64,000 nt of DNA. It comes from Gilliamella bombicola. GTDB lineage: Bacteria > Pseudomonadota > Gammaproteobacteria > Enterobacterales > Orbaceae. This document shows positions 35,687-42,048 of this stretch, one piece after another. The DNA lies in contig NZ_FMAQ01000002.1 in NCBI RefSeq assembly GCF_900094945.1, positions 247,231 to 311,230 on the forward strand. The letters run 5' to 3'. The stretch's first letter is position 1. Each line of letters opens with the position of its first letter. The notes beneath the pieces were generated by a model, which saw only the letters and a list, made by a program, of their open reading frames with translations, ran no database searches and was not told where the DNA came from. The position numbers were made by a program, and so were the translations under genes.

Positions 35687-35719
35687 CAATTTTTTGTCGA
35701 CATTTAAAGTGCAAAAAAA

Positions 35720-36256
35720 TCACTCAATATTCGCATGCCGACACTTCATTATCTCTGGGGTCTGTTGTAAGCTTTCCATTAAACTATAAATAACACTGTC
35801 ATAAGTTAGTAATGAGAGTTGCTCAAATGTGCTACCCATTGGTTGGCTTAACTTATCAACTCTTATAGGAATAATAACTATATTATCGGCTAATTTTGCC
35901 AAGGTCGAGGTGCCGTTTGTTGTGAATAATATGACTTTGACGCCCAAGTCTTTTGCCTGCTGTGCGTAGGCAATTAAACTTTTGGTTTCGCCTGAATTAG
36001 ATCCTAAAATTAGCAAATCACCTTTATTGGCTTTGGGTTTACTAACTTCGGTAATTAAGCTGACCTTTAAACCTAAATGCATTAACCGATTGGCAAATGC
36101 ACTTATCATTAACCCTGAACGCCCTGTTCCCGCTAAAAATAGATGGTTTGCACCAATAATCGCATTTTTAAATTCGTGTAATTGTGCTTCGTTGATTGTG
36201 TCTATTTGTGCCGCTATTTCAGTTAATATATTACTTAATATTGTTTTTATGCTCAT
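35720..36256 (-). CDS. SIS-domain sugar-phosphate isomerase (6-phospho-3-hexuloisomerase-like)
   Basis: A 178-aa single SIS-domain protein. HxlB-type enzymes interconvert D-arabino-3-hexulose-6-phosphate and fructose-6-phosphate. Landmarks: LFLAGTGRSGLMISAFANRLMHLGLKV (residues 39-65), LLILGSNSGETKSLIAYAQQ with the sugar-phosphate-binding SNSGET, VILFTTNGTSTLAKLAD and QPMGSTFEQL with the catalytic-type Glu. The formaldehyde-fixing partner HxlA is absent; an epimerase gene precedes it instead, so it is unlikely to fix formaldehyde. It is the last gene of the PTS operon. Confidence 0.8.
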   Translation of the reverse strand: MSIKTILSNILTEIAAQIDTINEAQLHEFKNAIIGANHLFLAGTGRSGLMISAFANRLMHLGLKVSLITEVSKPKANKGDLLILGSNSGETKSLIAYAQQAKDLGVKVILFTTNGTSTLAKLADNIVIIPIRVDKLSQPMGSTFEQLSLLTYDSVIYSLMESLQQTPEIMKCRHANIE

Positions 36257-36266
36257 TGCACTTTCC

Positions 36267-36917
36267 TTAATTAGTTGCCACTTTTAATTTTTCAATATTG
36301 TTTGCAATATCATTATTTTTAAAGATAAACCCACCCGAAACAATATTATTAGCTCCGGCTTTTAAGCATAGTGATAGGGTTTTATCAGTAATATTTCCGT
36401 CGACTTGAATATCATAAGAGTAATTATTTTTTTGCCGTTCTAAACTCAGTTGTTCAATTTTTTGTAATGTGAAAGGCAAAAAGGTTTCGTTTTTTTGTCC
36501 GGGATTAACGGTCATAACAAGGACAAGATCAACAAGCGGCAATAGCATTTTAATGTGTTCAACCGGTGTGCTTGGGTTGATTGCCAAACCGACTTTTATA
36601 TTATTGTTTTTTATTTTATTGATGATAAACGAATGATGAACCGTTGCCTCATAGTGAAAAGTGATAATATCGGGTTTAGCTTCAATAAAATCGAAAATTG
36701 ATAATTCAGGTTTTTCAATCATTAGGTGGCAATCTAAAATAAAATGGGTATGCGATTTCAAATTTGATACAAAACCAGTATTAAAACCTAAATTTGGGAC
36801 ATAGTGATTATCCATTACATCAATATGTAAATGCGTAATGCCTAGTGATTCAAGCGTATCTAACGTTTCTTTGATCAGGTAAAGATCTGAATTAAACAAT
36901 GATGGAGACAAAATCAT
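36267..36917 (-). CDS. Ribulose-phosphate 3-epimerase-family sugar-phosphate epimerase
   Basis: A 216-aa TIM-barrel epimerase of the Rpe/AlsE family, acting at C3 of ketose phosphates. The start was chosen at ATG 36917 (MILSPSLFNSDL), which has an AAGGTG ribosome site eight bases upstream; a GTG nine bases earlier is less likely. Metal ligands are in place: His and Asp in HLHIDVMDNHYVPNLG, His in LDCHLMIEKP, Asp in IQVDGNI. Other features are VMTVNPGQ and the phosphate loop SGGFIF. Its place in a PTS operon suggests a hexulose-phosphate such as allulose-6-phosphate rather than ribulose-5-phosphate. Confidence 0.82.
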   Translation of the reverse strand: MILSPSLFNSDLYLIKETLDTLESLGITHLHIDVMDNHYVPNLGFNTGFVSNLKSHTHFILDCHLMIEKPELSIFDFIEAKPDIITFHYEATVHHSFIINKIKNNNIKVGLAINPSTPVEHIKMLLPLVDLVLVMTVNPGQKNETFLPFTLQKIEQLSLERQKNNYSYDIQVDGNITDKTLSLCLKAGANNIVSGGFIFKNNDIANNIEKLKVATN

Positions 36918-36931
36918 AATTATCACCTTTA

Positions 36932-37447
36932 TTAACAGCCCATCAACATAAAATTAACATTGCGGGTTCTTTCTCGTAATGAATCCCAGTCAACAAAATA
37001 AATTCGCCCAAGTTCGCCCATAAGAGGCTTGCCATTCTTGATGATTAATACCAATGAAAAACTACCAAATAGCGATGATTTGATATGAGCATCGGTATTA
37101 AGCATTACCCATTTTTTAGCAGGATAATTGGGATCATTTAGACTTAAACCAAACTCAATATGCTTTGGTCCAGGGCTATTGTATTGATTTTCGCTAGTCA
37201 TTTTAGGAACAATCTGCTCTAACACATTATTAATATCAACATGCAAATATTCGTCACCAAAAAAATTGGTGTCGTGCATACATTCATCAAAAAAAAGTGA
37301 ACATGTCGTATGCGTTGTGGCGATGGTCAGTTGACCATTTTGGATATTTGATTGTGCAATAAATTGGTTTAATTCATTAGTAATATCGTGATAAGAGTGT
37401 CGACCAGATACCGTTTCAATTTTTATGGCGTGGTGATAAATGTTCAT
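36932..37447 (-). CDS. YjbQ-family (UPF0047) protein
   Basis: A 171-aa member of the YjbQ family. Landmarks: QLTIATTHTTCSLFFDE (family THTT block), the GPKHIEFGLSLND segment, and LNTDAHIKSSLFGSFSLVLIIKNGKPLMG. The metal-type histidines (HTT, HIE, HIK) are kept, but the usual GTWQ-like turn reads GELG. Family members have weak thiamine-phosphate-synthase activity when overproduced; the physiological role is unknown. It sits inside the PTS operon between EIIB and the epimerase, 5 bases from the epimerase frame, which suggests a job in sugar-phosphate chemistry. Confidence 0.78.
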   Translation of the reverse strand: MNIYHHAIKIETVSGRHSYHDITNELNQFIAQSNIQNGQLTIATTHTTCSLFFDECMHDTNFFGDEYLHVDINNVLEQIVPKMTSENQYNSPGPKHIEFGLSLNDPNYPAKKWVMLNTDAHIKSSLFGSFSLVLIIKNGKPLMGELGRIYFVDWDSLRERTRNVNFMLMGC

Positions 37448-37553
37448 ATTGGTATTATTCCTTGTTTATATGCCCCATTTACTTGTTTGCCGTTGGGCTA
37501 AATAGCAATGTAAATGGGGCTTAGTTTTATACACCTTATTTAATTTGATAATG

Positions 37554-37838
37554 CTAGATGGCTAAACGCTTTTTTAGTTCAGCAAAAAATTCGTTTAAAC
37601 CAACGCCAGTCAACAAAGCTAAACCATTTATAACTTTACCCTTAATTGATTCTGGTACGATGGTAGTGCTAATAACTACGTCATATGTGTCTATTTTATT
37701 TAACTCATCGGCTATTTTTGATTGATAGATTTTGACACTTTCTGTTAATTTTTCATCATTTAGCCATTTAGTCACTTTACTAACAGCAATAGTTGATGTT
37801 GCATGCCCTGCACCACACATAATGAGTAATTTTTTCAT
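37554..37838 (-). CDS. PTS EIIB, galactitol type
   Basis: A 94-aa phosphocarrier of the GatB type. The phosphorylated cysteine is in KKLLIMCGAGHATSTIAVSK (Cys at residue 7). The start was set at ATG 37838, eight bases after AAGGA; an ATG two codons upstream is too close to that site. EIIB passes phosphate from EIIA to the sugar during uptake by EIIC. It is separate from EIIC, as in other galactitol-class systems, and lies 13 bases after it. Confidence 0.85.
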   Translation of the reverse strand: MKKLLIMCGAGHATSTIAVSKVTKWLNDEKLTESVKIYQSKIADELNKIDTYDVVISTTIVPESIKGKVINGLALLTGVGLNEFFAELKKRLAI

Positions 37839-37851
37839 AATCATGTTCCTT

Positions 37852-39189
37852 TTAGTACATTTCGATTTTTTTGATTTTATTGATATAAATTAGCGAGCAT
37901 AAAATCACTAGAGCTAAACCTATCAATCCGATATAACCAAGATAGTTTAATAACAACACAAATAAGGTGACTGGCCATAAACCACATAAAATAACTGTGA
38001 CAATGCCCGCAGTGCCCACATCATAGTTAGCTAAATGAAATACATCGGTAATAACCGGCGCTAGCCAAGTTGCCATATATAGGCAAATCACTAAATAAAT
38101 TGTGCCCCCAATAATTGATCGAACAATATTTCCTTTAAAAAACGGAACCATCAAACAGATACCAAAAGCGTAGAAGGCTAAATCACCAAAAGGTAACACT
38201 TTATTACCCGGCAAGATTAAGGCTAATAGGAGTGAAACCGGAACCATAATTAATGCCGTTGCCATAACAGCGGGATGTCCAACCGTTAATGCCGCATCCA
38301 TACCAATATTAACTTGCTTGCCATTAAGTTTTTTACTGGTGAATTCTCGAGCAGCTTCAGCAACCGGTAGTAAACCTTCCATAAACATGGCAACCATTTT
38401 GGGCATTATTTTCATAATTGCCGCAGTTGAAATTGCTAGCTTACCGATTTGCGGAACATCATAACCAGCTAAAATTCCCACAACTAAACCAATAATTAAA
38501 CCAATAACGACCGTATCACCAAAAATACCGAACCTTTTGGTTAAAGTTTCTGAATCGGCATTTAATTGATTAAATCCAGGAATACGATCAAAGATCCAAT
38601 TTAAAGGAATTGCCACAACAGCGCCCGACAAGGCCATTAAGTGAGTAATTGAAATACCTGGATAGCCAAAAAATGAACTTATCGGTTTTTGTAATAAGTC
38701 GGCTAAGAACCATTGCAACATAACAGCCGTGATACATCCAATAATCCCTACCCAATAAAATCCCGTTACTGAATAAGCCACTAGTCCTAAGAATATCGCA
38801 AACCAAAAATTCCAAATATCAACATTTAAAGTGCGCGTCCAACCGAGTGAAATAAAGATAAAGTTAATTATCAACGAAATAGGAATAAGCAGTAATCCTA
38901 ACGTAGTTGAAAACGCCAACGGTCCACCTACTCCACACCCAATATCCATGATGCTTAATGATGTTCCGTATTGTTCCCCCATTTTTTGAATTGCAACACC
39001 TAAAGTGTCAGACAATAACGTGATCACTAAACCTAAACCGACTATACCAATACCGACAGTAATACCGGCCATAATCGCTTTGGAAAACGGCACTCTAAAA
39101 AATAAGGCGATAATAAAGATAATGATAGGTAAAAATACTACCCCTCCTAAATTTATTAGCCATTGAAAAATGTTAATCACACTATCCAT
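37852..39189 (-). CDS. PTS EIIC, galactitol-type permease
   Basis: A 445-aa integral membrane component of a galactitol-class PTS permease (GatC/SgcC). Landmarks: FRVPFSKAIMAGITVGIGIVGL near residue 30, MGEQYGTSLSIMDIGCGVGGPLAFST, MVAMFMEGLLPVAEAAREFTSKKL and DAALTVGHPAVMATALIM. It has a ribosome site AAGGAG seven bases before its ATG. The substrate cannot be deduced; relatives carry galactitol, arabitol or unknown ketoses. The downstream hexulose-phosphate enzymes suggest a hexitol or ketohexose. Confidence 0.87.
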   Translation of the reverse strand: MDSVINIFQWLINLGGVVFLPIIIFIIALFFRVPFSKAIMAGITVGIGIVGLGLVITLLSDTLGVAIQKMGEQYGTSLSIMDIGCGVGGPLAFSTTLGLLLIPISLIINFIFISLGWTRTLNVDIWNFWFAIFLGLVAYSVTGFYWVGIIGCITAVMLQWFLADLLQKPISSFFGYPGISITHLMALSGAVVAIPLNWIFDRIPGFNQLNADSETLTKRFGIFGDTVVIGLIIGLVVGILAGYDVPQIGKLAISTAAIMKIMPKMVAMFMEGLLPVAEAAREFTSKKLNGKQVNIGMDAALTVGHPAVMATALIMVPVSLLLALILPGNKVLPFGDLAFYAFGICLMVPFFKGNIVRSIIGGTIYLVICLYMATWLAPVITDVFHLANYDVGTAGIVTVILCGLWPVTLFVLLLNYLGYIGLIGLALVILCSLIYINKIKKIEMY

Positions 39190-39218
39190 TTTAGGACTCC
39201 TTTATAAAAGTTAACTTT

Positions 39219-39674
39219 CTATTTCACACCAGCTACATTTAAAATAGCGATAAATTCGTTAATTGAATGACATTGTTCCAATAATTTTATTTGTTGTTCA
39301 TTTTGAAATAAGCCTATTAAGTTTTGTAAATTTTCAACTTGTTCATGAGGTTGTTTCATGGCAAGCATAAAAATAAATTTGACGGGAATTTTTTCGTTTT
39401 CATCAGTCATACATCTAAAAATGACTGGCTGTTTTAATGATGCAAAACAAATTTGTGATTGATTAACTCTTGATGAATCCGTATGTGGCAAAGCAAACCC
39501 AACAGAATTAACCAATAAACCAGTTGGATATTGTTGTTCTCTTTGTAAAATACCGTCTAAAAAATCTTGTTTAACTATCCCATTGCTAAATAACATTTGT
39601 GCCATCTGCGTGAGAACTTGTTCTTGATTTAATGCCTCGATATTTAAAAGGCATAGCTGTTTATCAAAGTACAT
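39219..39674 (-). CDS. PTS EIIA, fructose/galactitol type
   Basis: A 151-aa EIIA domain. The phosphorylated histidine is in SVGFALPHTDSSRV (about residue 68). Other family features are GILQREQQYPTGLL and KIPVKFIFMLAMKQPHEQVENL. It accepts phosphate from HPr and gives it to EIIB. The start ATG 39674 follows GAGGA, and the first 11 bases overlap the end of the regulator, so translation is coupled. Confidence 0.86.
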   Translation of the reverse strand: MYFDKQLCLLNIEALNQEQVLTQMAQMLFSNGIVKQDFLDGILQREQQYPTGLLVNSVGFALPHTDSSRVNQSQICFASLKQPVIFRCMTDENEKIPVKFIFMLAMKQPHEQVENLQNLIGLFQNEQQIKLLEQCHSINEFIAILNVAGVK

Positions 39675-41640
39675 TTTTGATTCCTCTTTGATTATCCAAA
39701 AATAATTTTAGTTGTTTAAAGCTGGTGATATTTTTTAATGCTGATATAGCATGCTTGTTCGAAACAATTTCGTAAATTTCAGTAAATACTTCATTGATAC
39801 TATTAATGTTTTTTTCAGAAAGGCTAACCATAATAATCACGCTAACATCAATAACACCCCATTTGATGGGTTTGCGTAAGGTCATAATGGATATACTAGA
39901 TTTAGTCACAAACATCGGTGAGCCATGAGGTAAAGCGATACCATTTTCGATAGCCGTGTCGCCTATTTCTTCGCGCTGTAAAACAGAATCGCGGTAGTGA
40001 GAAGTGACATAACCTTTATCTTCAAGACGATGTATTAATTTGTTAAGACATTCATTTTTATTATCAATATTGACATTTAATTGAATAAGGTCAGGATCAA
40101 CAAATTTTGCCATGGATGGATAACAATTCTGTTTTTCAGAAAAATCAGATTGTTTATTTAAGACATAATTGGCATATGCCTGAATAATATTTTGGTAGTC
40201 ATTAGTATTTAGCAGTGAAGATATTTTAACAACTGGCTTATTCAGATTATTGATATCAAGTGTAGTAATAAATAAATCAACATTACTAAGATTGGTCGAT
40301 GTCAATTTTGAAATCGAATAAACCTCAATATTATCTTTAGATGGTAATATTTTTCGAACTTTATTAAGAATTAGATTTGATGAACAGCAACCATATTGGC
40401 AAACAATCACAATATTATTAGCATCAGCAGCTTTATCTAACGCAATTTGAAAATGAATCAATAAAAATGAGATTTCGTGATCGTTTAAACAAATATCAAA
40501 TTTACGTTCTAAATCAGAAAGTGCATACCACAATACACTAAATAATTTTGAATATTCGTGTTTTATTTCTTTTAATATCGGATTAATAATACGTATTTGT
40601 TTTTGCAAACGGGTAATCATGGGTGGAAAGTGAGATAACAATGAATGGAACAATTTGCTATCTTTCGATAAATCGATTCCTTCAATTTCGCCAATTTTTC
40701 TTATAATCTTGCGGATGATTTGTTCATAAAAACTATCATCAACTTTTACCGATTCATCGATAATTCGATGTGCAAAAAACAACTTACTGAGATATTTAAT
40801 ATCATTCGTTGAAAACTCAATGTTAAACGTAACCTCAAGCAGTTGAGCAAGATCGGATGCAATCAAATACGATTGCATATAACGGATATGGTTAAATAAA
40901 AAATCATCTTCTTCATCGATGGTATAACCTAGCGTTAACCGTTTTAATTGTATTGCTATCGATATCAATAATGATAATAAATAATATTCAGAGGATCGCT
41001 GAACGATTGATTCGTAATGTTCAAATAATAATTGGCTAATTTGCTCAAAAGAATCATCATCCATCAATGACCTCATGAGTTGATTAAGATAATAACTGTC
41101 TTGTTTATGAATATATAACAATAAAAAATGCTTAATTGCGCGTTGAATTTGGTTTTCTTTACCCTCTACAACAATGGTTTTATGCGTGACATTTAGTAAG
41201 ACATTTTCAGATGCTAATGAACGGTTAATAAACTCAATATCTTTATGTAGCGATGTTTTACTTACAATATAATCATCAGAGAGCTGCTCTAATGAGACAT
41301 TTTCTTGATTTAATAAACAACGTTTTACAATATCTAATCGACGATATTCCGGTGTTAATCGACGTGAGTTTTTATTAAAATAGCCATGACTATTGTTTTG
41401 CTCTAAATAACCAATGACCGAATCAATACAGCCTTTATTTCCCTTCAGTATTAAGCCTTTGCGGGGGGATTTTTCGATATAAATATCGCTATTTGGGACG
41501 GTTAATAGCTGATCATTTAATTTCTCAATGTCAAAATAAATGGTTTTGGTCGAAATGGATAACTTTAAACTAAAATAGGCTGCTGGTCTAAATTCAGACT
41601 CTTTAAAAAGTAGTTTCAGTAACTCTATTTGTCTTTCCAT
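39664..41640 (-). CDS. PRD-containing transcriptional regulator with EIIB- and EIIA-like domains (MtlR/GatR-like activator)
   Basis: A 658-aa multi-domain regulator, start ATG 41640 (MERQIELLKLLFKESEF) after AAGGAG. Order: winged helix (residues 1-60), second helix-turn-helix with LEQLSDDYIVSKTSLHKDIEF (about 115-140), two PRD domains (about 180-400), an EIIB-like domain with IVCQYGCCSSNLILNK (about 415-430) and an EIIA-like domain with IENGIALPHGSPMFV (about 555-570). Phosphorylation by HPr and EIIB would set its activity according to sugar supply. It is the first gene of the operon it probably controls; an 18-bp palindrome lies about 95 bases upstream. Confidence 0.87.
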   Translation of the reverse strand: MERQIELLKLLFKESEFRPAAYFSLKLSISTKTIYFDIEKLNDQLLTVPNSDIYIEKSPRKGLILKGNKGCIDSVIGYLEQNNSHGYFNKNSRRLTPEYRRLDIVKRCLLNQENVSLEQLSDDYIVSKTSLHKDIEFINRSLASENVLLNVTHKTIVVEGKENQIQRAIKHFLLLYIHKQDSYYLNQLMRSLMDDDSFEQISQLLFEHYESIVQRSSEYYLLSLLISIAIQLKRLTLGYTIDEEDDFLFNHIRYMQSYLIASDLAQLLEVTFNIEFSTNDIKYLSKLFFAHRIIDESVKVDDSFYEQIIRKIIRKIGEIEGIDLSKDSKLFHSLLSHFPPMITRLQKQIRIINPILKEIKHEYSKLFSVLWYALSDLERKFDICLNDHEISFLLIHFQIALDKAADANNIVIVCQYGCCSSNLILNKVRKILPSKDNIEVYSISKLTSTNLSNVDLFITTLDINNLNKPVVKISSLLNTNDYQNIIQAYANYVLNKQSDFSEKQNCYPSMAKFVDPDLIQLNVNIDNKNECLNKLIHRLEDKGYVTSHYRDSVLQREEIGDTAIENGIALPHGSPMFVTKSSISIMTLRKPIKWGVIDVSVIIMVSLSEKNINSINEVFTEIYEIVSNKHAISALKNITSFKQLKLFLDNQRGIKNVL

Positions 41641-41733
41641 TACCAAACTCCTTTTTCATGTTTTGTCGCAATACATTTATAACTCTATGCTTTAAAGTAT
41701 AATTAGTTAAATAAATAAGACGATGACATTTTT

Positions 41734-41751
41734 TTCCAGATTAATCTGGAA
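41734..41751. promoter_or_regulatory. 18-bp perfect palindrome upstream of the PTS operon
   Basis: TTCCAGATTAATCTGGAA reads the same on both strands. It lies 94 bases before the regulator start, in a 400-base gene-free gap (41641-42048) that otherwise shows only AT-rich DNA. A dimeric regulator's operator is likely; which regulator is not known. Confidence 0.55.
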
Positions 41752-42048
41752 TTAGATGTAATTGAAGAAAACGGGAAAAAGAATATGTTGAAATAATAAT
41801 GATAAAAGATGGCGTATTTATTGGGATTTTTTCTATGATGTTTTAGTTGGTTTAGGATTTAATCACGACAAAATTTTGTAATGCAGTCATAGCATTTTAA
41901 AATAGCTAAAATCTAACTACATAAAAACATTTCATAAAAATCGGATAGCATTTTTCTTAAATTAATCAATTTTGTCAATATAAAGAATTTGAAATAAAGC
42001 TTAATTTATTATATTGTTGCGAATCTTTTAATAAATAAGGAGTATTAA

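What the first reader, a model, noticed from the sequence alone, without database searches (positions are those of the whole stretch)
35720..41751. PTS operon coupling a galactitol-type permease to hexulose-phosphate isomerase, epimerase and YjbQ
Seven minus-strand genes with short gaps or overlaps: PRD regulator, EIIA, EIIC, EIIB, YjbQ, an Rpe/AlsE-like epimerase and an HxlB-like SIS isomerase. A galactitol dehydrogenase and a tagatose aldolase, expected for galactitol use, are missing, and so is HxlA. A sugar taken up as a ketohexose phosphate, epimerised at C3 and isomerised to fructose-6-phosphate would fit. The embedded YjbQ, a family with no settled role, suggests it works on a sugar phosphate here.
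Basis: partly seen in the sequence, partly recalled or inferred. Interest (0 to 1): 0.68.

Follow-up and report, generated by a model that had tools for sequence, protein, structure and literature searches.

The report
Sugar-uptake operon with orphan YjbQ enzyme
Bee-gut Gilliamella carry a seven-gene operon, also found in gut Firmicutes and on many Enterococcus faecium plasmids, that probably takes up an unidentified sugar; its conservation shows that one branch of the 'unknown function' YjbQ family is a working part of sugar-phosphate pathways and gives that branch a testable role.

Summary
Seven minus-strand genes (35720-41640) encode a PRD activator, EIIA, EIIC-GAT, EIIB, YjbQ, an Rpe-like epimerase and an HxlB-like isomerase. 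The same genes in the same order occur in other Gilliamella genomes, another Orbaceae genus, Anaerococcus, Streptococcus mitis and E. faecium megaplasmids (YjbQ 68%, EIIC 71%). A Lacticaseibacillus plasmid carries them plus one extra isomerase gene. YjbQ is present in every intact copy.

The YjbQ belongs to a distinct 'long form' (about 170 aa, two insertions, invariant C49/H58/D59). Across Clostridia, Fusobacteria and Bacilli this form sits beside sugar-phosphate enzymes, above all a TIM-barrel isomerase (39 of 46 loci). Short YjbQs do not (0 of 11).

Its pathway is not: the epimerase has the RPE-length, not the AlsE-length, phosphate loop. That points to C4 epimerisation of a 3-hexulose-6-phosphate, the HxlB substrate, not C3 epimerisation of a 2-ketohexose phosphate.

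My best model is that YjbQ moves a carbonyl along the chain and so delivers the 3-ketose to Rpe and HxlB, ending in fructose-6-phosphate. The imported sugar is unknown and no activity was measured.

The parts
41641..41819 (-). upstream region of the operon (probable promoter and activator site)
   Evidence: non-coding; DNA conservation with other Gilliamella copies ends at 41779-41819; promoter-like matches in the region are no more than chance
39664..41640 (-). PRD-containing transcriptional activator (HTH_11, Mga HTH, two PRD, EIIB-like, EIIA-like)
   Evidence: orthologues at the head of the operon in all intact copies
39219..39674 (-). PTS EIIA (PTS_EIIA_2)
   Evidence: below the galactitol EIIA equivalog cut-off (63 against 139)
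37852..39189 (-). PTS EIIC, EIIC-GAT family permease
   Evidence: TIGR00827 379 bits against cut-off 542; 63-71% identical in Anaerococcus, S. mitis and E. faecium
37554..37844 (-). PTS EIIB
   Evidence: 67-69% identical in Anaerococcus, S. mitis and E. faecium copies
37448..37553 (-). spacer with an 11-bp stem-loop (GCCCCATTTAC...GTAAATGGGGC), Gilliamella copies only
   Evidence: folds in all copies examined, 4 of 11 pairs with double changes; spacer absent in L044 and Anaerococcus; may set the ratio of transporter to enzyme expression (inference)
36932..37447 (-). long-form YjbQ/UPF0047, proposed sugar-phosphate isomerase
   Evidence: fold matches YjbQ structures; long-form-specific invariant residues; context in 46 loci
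36267..36917 (-). Rpe-like epimerase; metal ligands H34, D36, H67, D176 (numbered from the GTG at 36926) kept; ATG 36917 is the likelier start
35720..36256 (-). HxlB-like 6-phospho-3-hexuloisomerase (SIS)
   Evidence: TIGR03127 184.3 against cut-off 160; closest solved relative B. subtilis YckF

Best explanation
This is an inducible catabolic operon for an unidentified sugar that is not an alditol. The PRD protein senses PTS phosphorylation and activates the operon. EIIA, EIIB and EIIC import and phosphorylate the sugar at a terminal carbon. Long-form YjbQ then rearranges the sugar phosphate. Most likely it moves the carbonyl one carbon along the chain and delivers a 3-hexulose-6-phosphate (carbonyl on the fourth carbon from the phosphate end). 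The Rpe-like enzyme epimerises the carbon next to that carbonyl on the phosphate side (C4), and HxlB moves the carbonyl to C2, giving fructose-6-phosphate. Shown here: gene content, order, conservation, the separate YjbQ subfamily with its sugar-phosphate neighbourhoods, and the RPE-length loop. Inferred: each reaction, the end product, the carbonyl-shift role of YjbQ and the imported sugar.
For: Conserved order PTS-YjbQ-Rpe-HxlB in Orbaceae, Anaerococcus and S. mitis and E. faecium plasmids; in a Lacticaseibacillus plasmid the set is kept with an extra SIS gene. HxlB passes its curated cut-off in Gilliamella, E. faecium and L. paracasei. The Rpe-like protein keeps all metal ligands and the RPE-length loop, as do the relatives paired with HxlB. 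In a sister set the PTS and YjbQ are accompanied by a class II aldolase and a TIM-like isomerase instead, so YjbQ works between uptake and central metabolism whichever exit is used. The TIM-like gene lies next to long YjbQ in 39 of 46 loci, and the 9 TIM-like proteins aligned keep the catalytic Lys, His and Glu. In DXR-II operons (L111, L118, L122) the product expected of DXR-II carries its carbonyl on the fourth carbon from the phosphate end, while the aldolase needs it on the second; TIM can do one of the two shifts and YjbQ is the only other isomerase candidate.
Against: No activity is known for any long-form YjbQ, and the family has been linked only to weak thiamine-phosphate synthesis. 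If YjbQ shifts the carbonyl between the third and fourth carbon, the Gilliamella PTS product should carry it on the third carbon from the phosphate end, which no common ketohexose or ketopentose does. The L. paracasei copy has a second, KpsF-type SIS isomerase whose step the model does not explain. HxlB-like SIS proteins could act on pentose phosphates instead. The YjbQ model is weak around the conserved 108-122 segment.
Confidence: 0.42

Rival explanations
1. Pentose route. The sugar is a pentose; the SIS protein interconverts an aldopentose-5-phosphate and ribulose-5-phosphate, Rpe makes xylulose-5-phosphate, and YjbQ makes the pentulose-5-phosphate. Carbon enters the pentose phosphate pathway, not glycolysis.
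For: RPE-length loop and rpe-like scores (208 bits, just under the equivalog cut-off). KpsF-type (arabinose-5-phosphate isomerase) SIS in the L. paracasei copy and in many Clostridia loci. Pentulokinase-like FGGY enzymes beside long YjbQ elsewhere.
Against: HxlB model passed in most copies. The genome already has another Rpe. The S-to-G change (SGG) in the phosphate loop of most HxlB-paired Rpe proteins suggests a substrate other than plain pentulose-5-phosphate (the L. paracasei copy is an exception).
Confidence: 0.25
2. One reading: uptake of a 2-ketohexose (allulose, sorbose or tagatose type), C3 epimerisation by an AlsE-like enzyme, then isomerisation to fructose-6-phosphate, with YjbQ in an auxiliary role.
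For: Rpe-like protein has moderate similarity to AlsE (175 bits; 3ct7 E 3e-38).
Against: AlsE cut-off 271 not met; loop one residue shorter than AlsE; C3 epimerisation of allulose-6-phosphate gives fructose-6-phosphate directly, leaving HxlB and YjbQ without a task.
Confidence: 0.08
3. Long-form YjbQ catalyses another sugar-phosphate reaction: an epimerisation, anomerisation, lactone hydrolysis or rearrangement of a branched sugar such as hamamelose.
For: Strict linkage to sugar-phosphate enzymes fixes the substrate class, not the reaction. Very weak fold similarity to YjgK.
Against: In TIM/aldolase/DXR-II operons a carbonyl shift is the missing step, and no other candidate for it was found in those operons.
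Confidence: 0.2
4. YjbQ is a passenger (thiamine-phosphate synthase or other housekeeping function) that happens to sit in the operon.
For: Family annotation 'secondary thiamine-phosphate synthase'.
Against: Kept in every intact copy across Orbaceae, Anaerococcus, S. mitis and plasmids; retained even in a Gilliamella copy that lost the PTS (L035); short-form YjbQs show no such linkage (0 of 11 against 18 of 19).
Confidence: 0.05

Closest known systems
RuMP formaldehyde pathway (HxlA-HxlB)
   Same: HxlB-family isomerase turning 3-hexulose-6-phosphate into fructose-6-phosphate
   Different: HxlA is absent from the operon and replaced by an Rpe-like epimerase, with a PTS and YjbQ added; in all 20 Bacilli HxlB loci inspected the partner belongs to one cluster, and the three members of it that were tested pass the HxlA model
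Galactitol PTS operon (gatABC with GatD and GatY/Z)
   Same: EIIC-GAT type permease with separate EIIA and EIIB
   Different: Scores far below galactitol equivalog cut-offs; no dehydrogenase, tagatose kinase or aldolase
D-allose/allulose pathway (AlsE)
   Same: Rpe-superfamily epimerase in a sugar operon
   Different: RPE-length loop, AlsE cut-off missed, no kinase
S. uberis mannitol-type PTS operon SUB0285-0289 (PMC2657157)
   Same: PTS with Rpe and 6-phospho-3-hexuloisomerase
   Different: Has a mannitol-1-phosphate dehydrogenase in place of YjbQ; Gilliamella also has an SDR version (L045, L047)
YjbQ / UPF0047 (TIGR00149, PF01894)
   Same: Same fold and family
   Different: Long form with two insertions, its own invariant or nearly invariant residues (C49, H58, D59, P92, H96, D153, R162) and sugar-operon context

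Membership tests
6-phospho-3-hexuloisomerase (HxlB, TIGR03127) | curated equivalog score of at least 160 bits | tested here: met
   184.3 bits; E. faecium 208, L. paracasei 175; Anaerococcus 154.7, just below
6-phospho-3-hexuloisomerase (HxlB, TIGR03127) | activity on 3-hexulose-6-phosphate | not testable with these tools
   needs an enzyme assay
RuMP pathway | HxlA beside HxlB | tested here: not met
   no HxlA in the operon; the rest of the genome was not searched
Ribulose-phosphate 3-epimerase (TIGR01163) | curated score of at least 212.6 | tested here: inconclusive
   207.9, E. faecium orthologue 224; metal ligands and RPE-length loop kept
D-allulose-6-phosphate 3-epimerase (AlsE, PRK09722) | curated score of at least 271 and a phosphate loop one residue longer than in RPE | tested here: not met
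   175 bits; no extra residue
Galactitol PTS permease (TIGR00827) | curated score of at least 542 | tested here: not met
   379 bits; EIIB 27.8 against 95, EIIA 63 against 139
Galactitol catabolic operon | galactitol-1-phosphate dehydrogenase plus tagatose-6-phosphate kinase/aldolase | tested here: not met
   none among the seven genes
YjbQ/UPF0047 (PF01894, TIGR00149) | Pfam and NCBIfam cut-offs; YjbQ fold | tested here: met
   PF01894 81 against 27; TIGR00149 68.2 against 67.75, borderline, with some orthologues below; fold match to 1vph, 1ve0 and others

The most novel reading that the evidence does not exclude
Long-form YjbQ is a ketose-phosphate isomerase that moves the carbonyl between the third and fourth carbon from the phosphate end. 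It would be the missing link that lets SIS isomerases and Rpe (fourth/fifth carbon), TIM-like isomerases (second/third) and class II aldolases (second) act in series. Such carbonyl-walk pathways would include reverse use of DXR-II, for instance catabolism of 2-C-methylerythritol through 1-deoxyxylulose-5-phosphate to dihydroxyacetone phosphate and acetaldehyde, and would give a branch of a protein family of unknown function its role.
Probability: 0.3. Interest if true: 0.85.

Novelty: new variant of a known kind. Interest (0 to 1): 0.62.

Why it matters
UPF0047/YjbQ is widespread (hits in 10 of 14 control genomes) and has no settled function. A well-defined subfamily that travels with sugar-phosphate enzymes across three phyla turns this into a directly testable biochemical question. 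The same operon is on many E. faecium plasmid records (146 records with a YjbQ at 60-80% identity), most of the listed ones from people, so the substrate may be a gut sugar relevant to colonisation; it is also shared with bee-gut Gilliamella. The DXR-II/TIM/aldolase/YjbQ operons suggest a catabolic role for DXR-II, an enzyme described in the paper found here (PMC3847144) for isoprenoid synthesis.

Tried and rejected
(1) Viral contigs and phage records hold no relative, so there is no sign that it is phage-borne. (2) A TIM-like isomerase elsewhere in the Gilliamella, Anaerococcus or S. mitis genomes, which would have completed an aldolase route: only weak partial hits, which I take to be ordinary TpiA and unrelated barrels. 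(3) HxlB loci in Bacilli as a guide to the substrate: all 20 inspected have the HxlA-type partner, so they were uninformative. (4) The predicted YjbQ model could not be used to read the active site because residues 108-122 have low confidence. (5) Literature: searches for YjbQ/UPF0047, for 3-hexulose with PTS and galactitol, for Gilliamella with galactitol, for hexuloisomerase with PTS, and for E. faecium plasmids found no study of this operon. (6) Deducing the sugar from the carbonyl positions gave no common sugar that satisfies the YjbQ step; the substrate is left open.
Full report
WHAT IS THERE. The window lies in a Gilliamella genome (G000, contig C20); 13 of the 35 same-genus genomes listed carry the operon's epimerase at 73% identity or more. 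Seven minus-strand genes run from the PRD regulator at 41640 to the SIS gene ending at 35720. Pfam and NCBIfam give PRD/Mga regulator with EIIB- and EIIA-like domains, EIIA, EIIC-GAT, EIIB, UPF0047/YjbQ, ribulose-phosphate-3-epimerase superfamily, and SIS of the HxlB type. There is no dehydrogenase, kinase, aldolase or HxlA in the operon.

CONSERVATION. In the 13 loci compared with the window (12 Gilliamella genomes and another Orbaceae genus, L044), the order PRD-EIIA-EIIC-EIIB-YjbQ-Rpe-SIS is intact in 12. In the 13th (L035) a deletion joined the first codons of the PRD gene to YjbQ and left YjbQ-Rpe-SIS. The same seven genes in the same order occur in two Anaerococcus species and a Streptococcus mitis strain (YjbQ 57-59%, EIIC 63-65%). 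They also occur on E. faecium megaplasmids (two read in full; 146 plasmid records hold a YjbQ and 145 an EIIC at 60-80% identity; YjbQ 68%, EIIC 71%). A Lacticaseibacillus paracasei plasmid has the set with a KpsF-type SIS gene inserted after YjbQ. The E. faecium and L. paracasei copies lie among transposase genes, and the S. mitis copy has transposase-like frames beside it. In 369 genomes of the window's class the long-form YjbQ was found only in the window genome, which points to transfer from Firmicutes or Fusobacteria (inference).

THE YJBQ SUBFAMILY. The operon's YjbQ is about 170 aa. Compared with ordinary YjbQ (about 135 aa) it has two insertions and a set of residues invariant or nearly so only in the long form: C49, H58, D59, P92, H96, G147, D153, R162 (numbering with the initial Met). 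Shared residues include H46, D71, N117 and H121. The AlphaFold model matches YjbQ structures, though confidence is low around 108-122. Surveys with a long-form profile found it in 2 of 98 Fusobacteriota, 47 of 391 genomes of the Anaerococcus class and 4 of 398 of the Streptococcus class.

NEIGHBOURHOODS. In 46 long-form loci a TIM-barrel isomerase of the archaeal TpiA type lies next to YjbQ in 39; FGGY kinases are near in 18, KpsF-type SIS in 16, arabinose-isomerase-like enzymes in 11, class II aldolases in 10. One of the 39 (L119) is only a weak fragment. As a control, in a set of mixed genomes 18 of 19 long-form loci but 0 of 11 short-form loci have any of these genes within 1.5 kb (Fisher p = 2e-7). 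The profiles were built from long-form loci and the loci are not independent, so this shows specificity rather than a strict probability.

CARBONYL POSITIONS. Count carbons from the phosphate end (p1 = CH2OP). Class II aldolases of this type cleave p2-ketose phosphates; TIM interconverts p3 and p2; Rpe epimerises p3 next to a p4 carbonyl; HxlB interconverts p4 and p5 (general enzymology, my own knowledge). Fusobacterial and Bacilli operons (L109, L110) have PTS-aldolase-TIM-YjbQ, and L112 and L127 add Rpe. In L111, L118 and L122 a sorbitol-type PTS accompanies a Brucella-DRL-like enzyme. In L111 and L118 it keeps G121, T229, H250 and R320, positions that PMC3847144 ties to true DXR-II. If its product is 1-deoxyxylulose-5-phosphate (p4), two shifts are needed before the aldolase can cut. 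TIM can do p3 to p2, which leaves p4 to p3 for YjbQ. This is the main argument for YjbQ as a carbonyl-shifting isomerase; it is inference, not demonstration.

THE GILLIAMELLA VERSION. Its YjbQ clade (99/91 support) is sister to the fusobacterial clade of PTS-aldolase-TIM-YjbQ operons (100/99). The exit enzymes differ: Rpe and HxlB replace TIM and aldolase, and no TIM-like gene of that type was found elsewhere in these genomes. The Rpe-like protein has the RPE-length loop after the eighth strand (SGGFIF) and lacks the extra residue of AlsE (GTSGLF). From published work on AlsE (own memory, Chan and colleagues 2008) that loop length sets pentulose-5-phosphate against hexulose-6-phosphate registration. 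So the enzyme should act next to a carbonyl at p4, which is where HxlB's 3-hexulose-6-phosphate has it. The two enzymes would then work on the same intermediate: C4 epimerisation, then isomerisation to fructose-6-phosphate. A parallel Gilliamella operon has an SDR dehydrogenase in place of YjbQ (L045, L047), and S. uberis has a mannitol-phosphate dehydrogenase there (PMC2657157). Those would be alditol versions of the same exit.

LIMITS. The imported sugar is unknown. If YjbQ works between p3 and p4, the PTS product should have its carbonyl at p3, which is unusual for a free sugar; this is the weakest point of the model. A pentose route ending in xylulose-5-phosphate remains possible. The extra SIS gene in L. 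paracasei is unexplained.

VERDICT. The single system is a new variant of a known kind (PTS catabolic operon); the YjbQ subfamily is the interesting part.

Noticed in passing
window 37448-37553 (minus strand): An 11-bp stem-loop between EIIB and YjbQ is kept in Gilliamella copies although its sequence changes (4 of 11 pairs with double changes). No T-run follows it in the window; possibly an mRNA processing or stability element.
   Followed up: partly
window 35713-41819: The operon behaves as a cassette: 99.3% identical to the G. mensalis copy (L032), which lies in a different chromosomal context, while a nearby flanking match is 93%. DNA matches to L032 and L033 stop at the operon edges.
   Followed up: partly
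L035 8805-9299: One Gilliamella genome has lost PRD to EIIB; the PRD start is fused to YjbQ, and YjbQ-Rpe-SIS remain as open frames.
   Followed up: partly
L111, L118, L122: DXR-II (Brucella DRL-like) gene near a sorbitol-type PTS, class II aldolase, TIM-like isomerase and YjbQ: a candidate catabolic pathway for 2-C-methylerythritol or a similar branched polyol.
   Followed up: partly
L045 4199-10547, L047 4400-10554: Other Gilliamella genomes carry related PTS operons with an SDR dehydrogenase between Rpe and HxlB and no YjbQ.
   Followed up: partly
L191, L194 (E. faecium plasmids): The operon sits beside a uberolysin-type circular bacteriocin gene and several IS elements on megaplasmids. In strain E39 (L191) the PRD regulator is annotated only as its C-terminal piece, although a near full-length frame is present.
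   Followed up: no
L126, L128, L137, L139, L140, L145, L148 and relatives: Clostridia loci with two long-form YjbQ genes, many with an uncharacterised amidohydrolase and an arabinose-isomerase-like protein: an unassigned sugar pathway.
   Followed up: no
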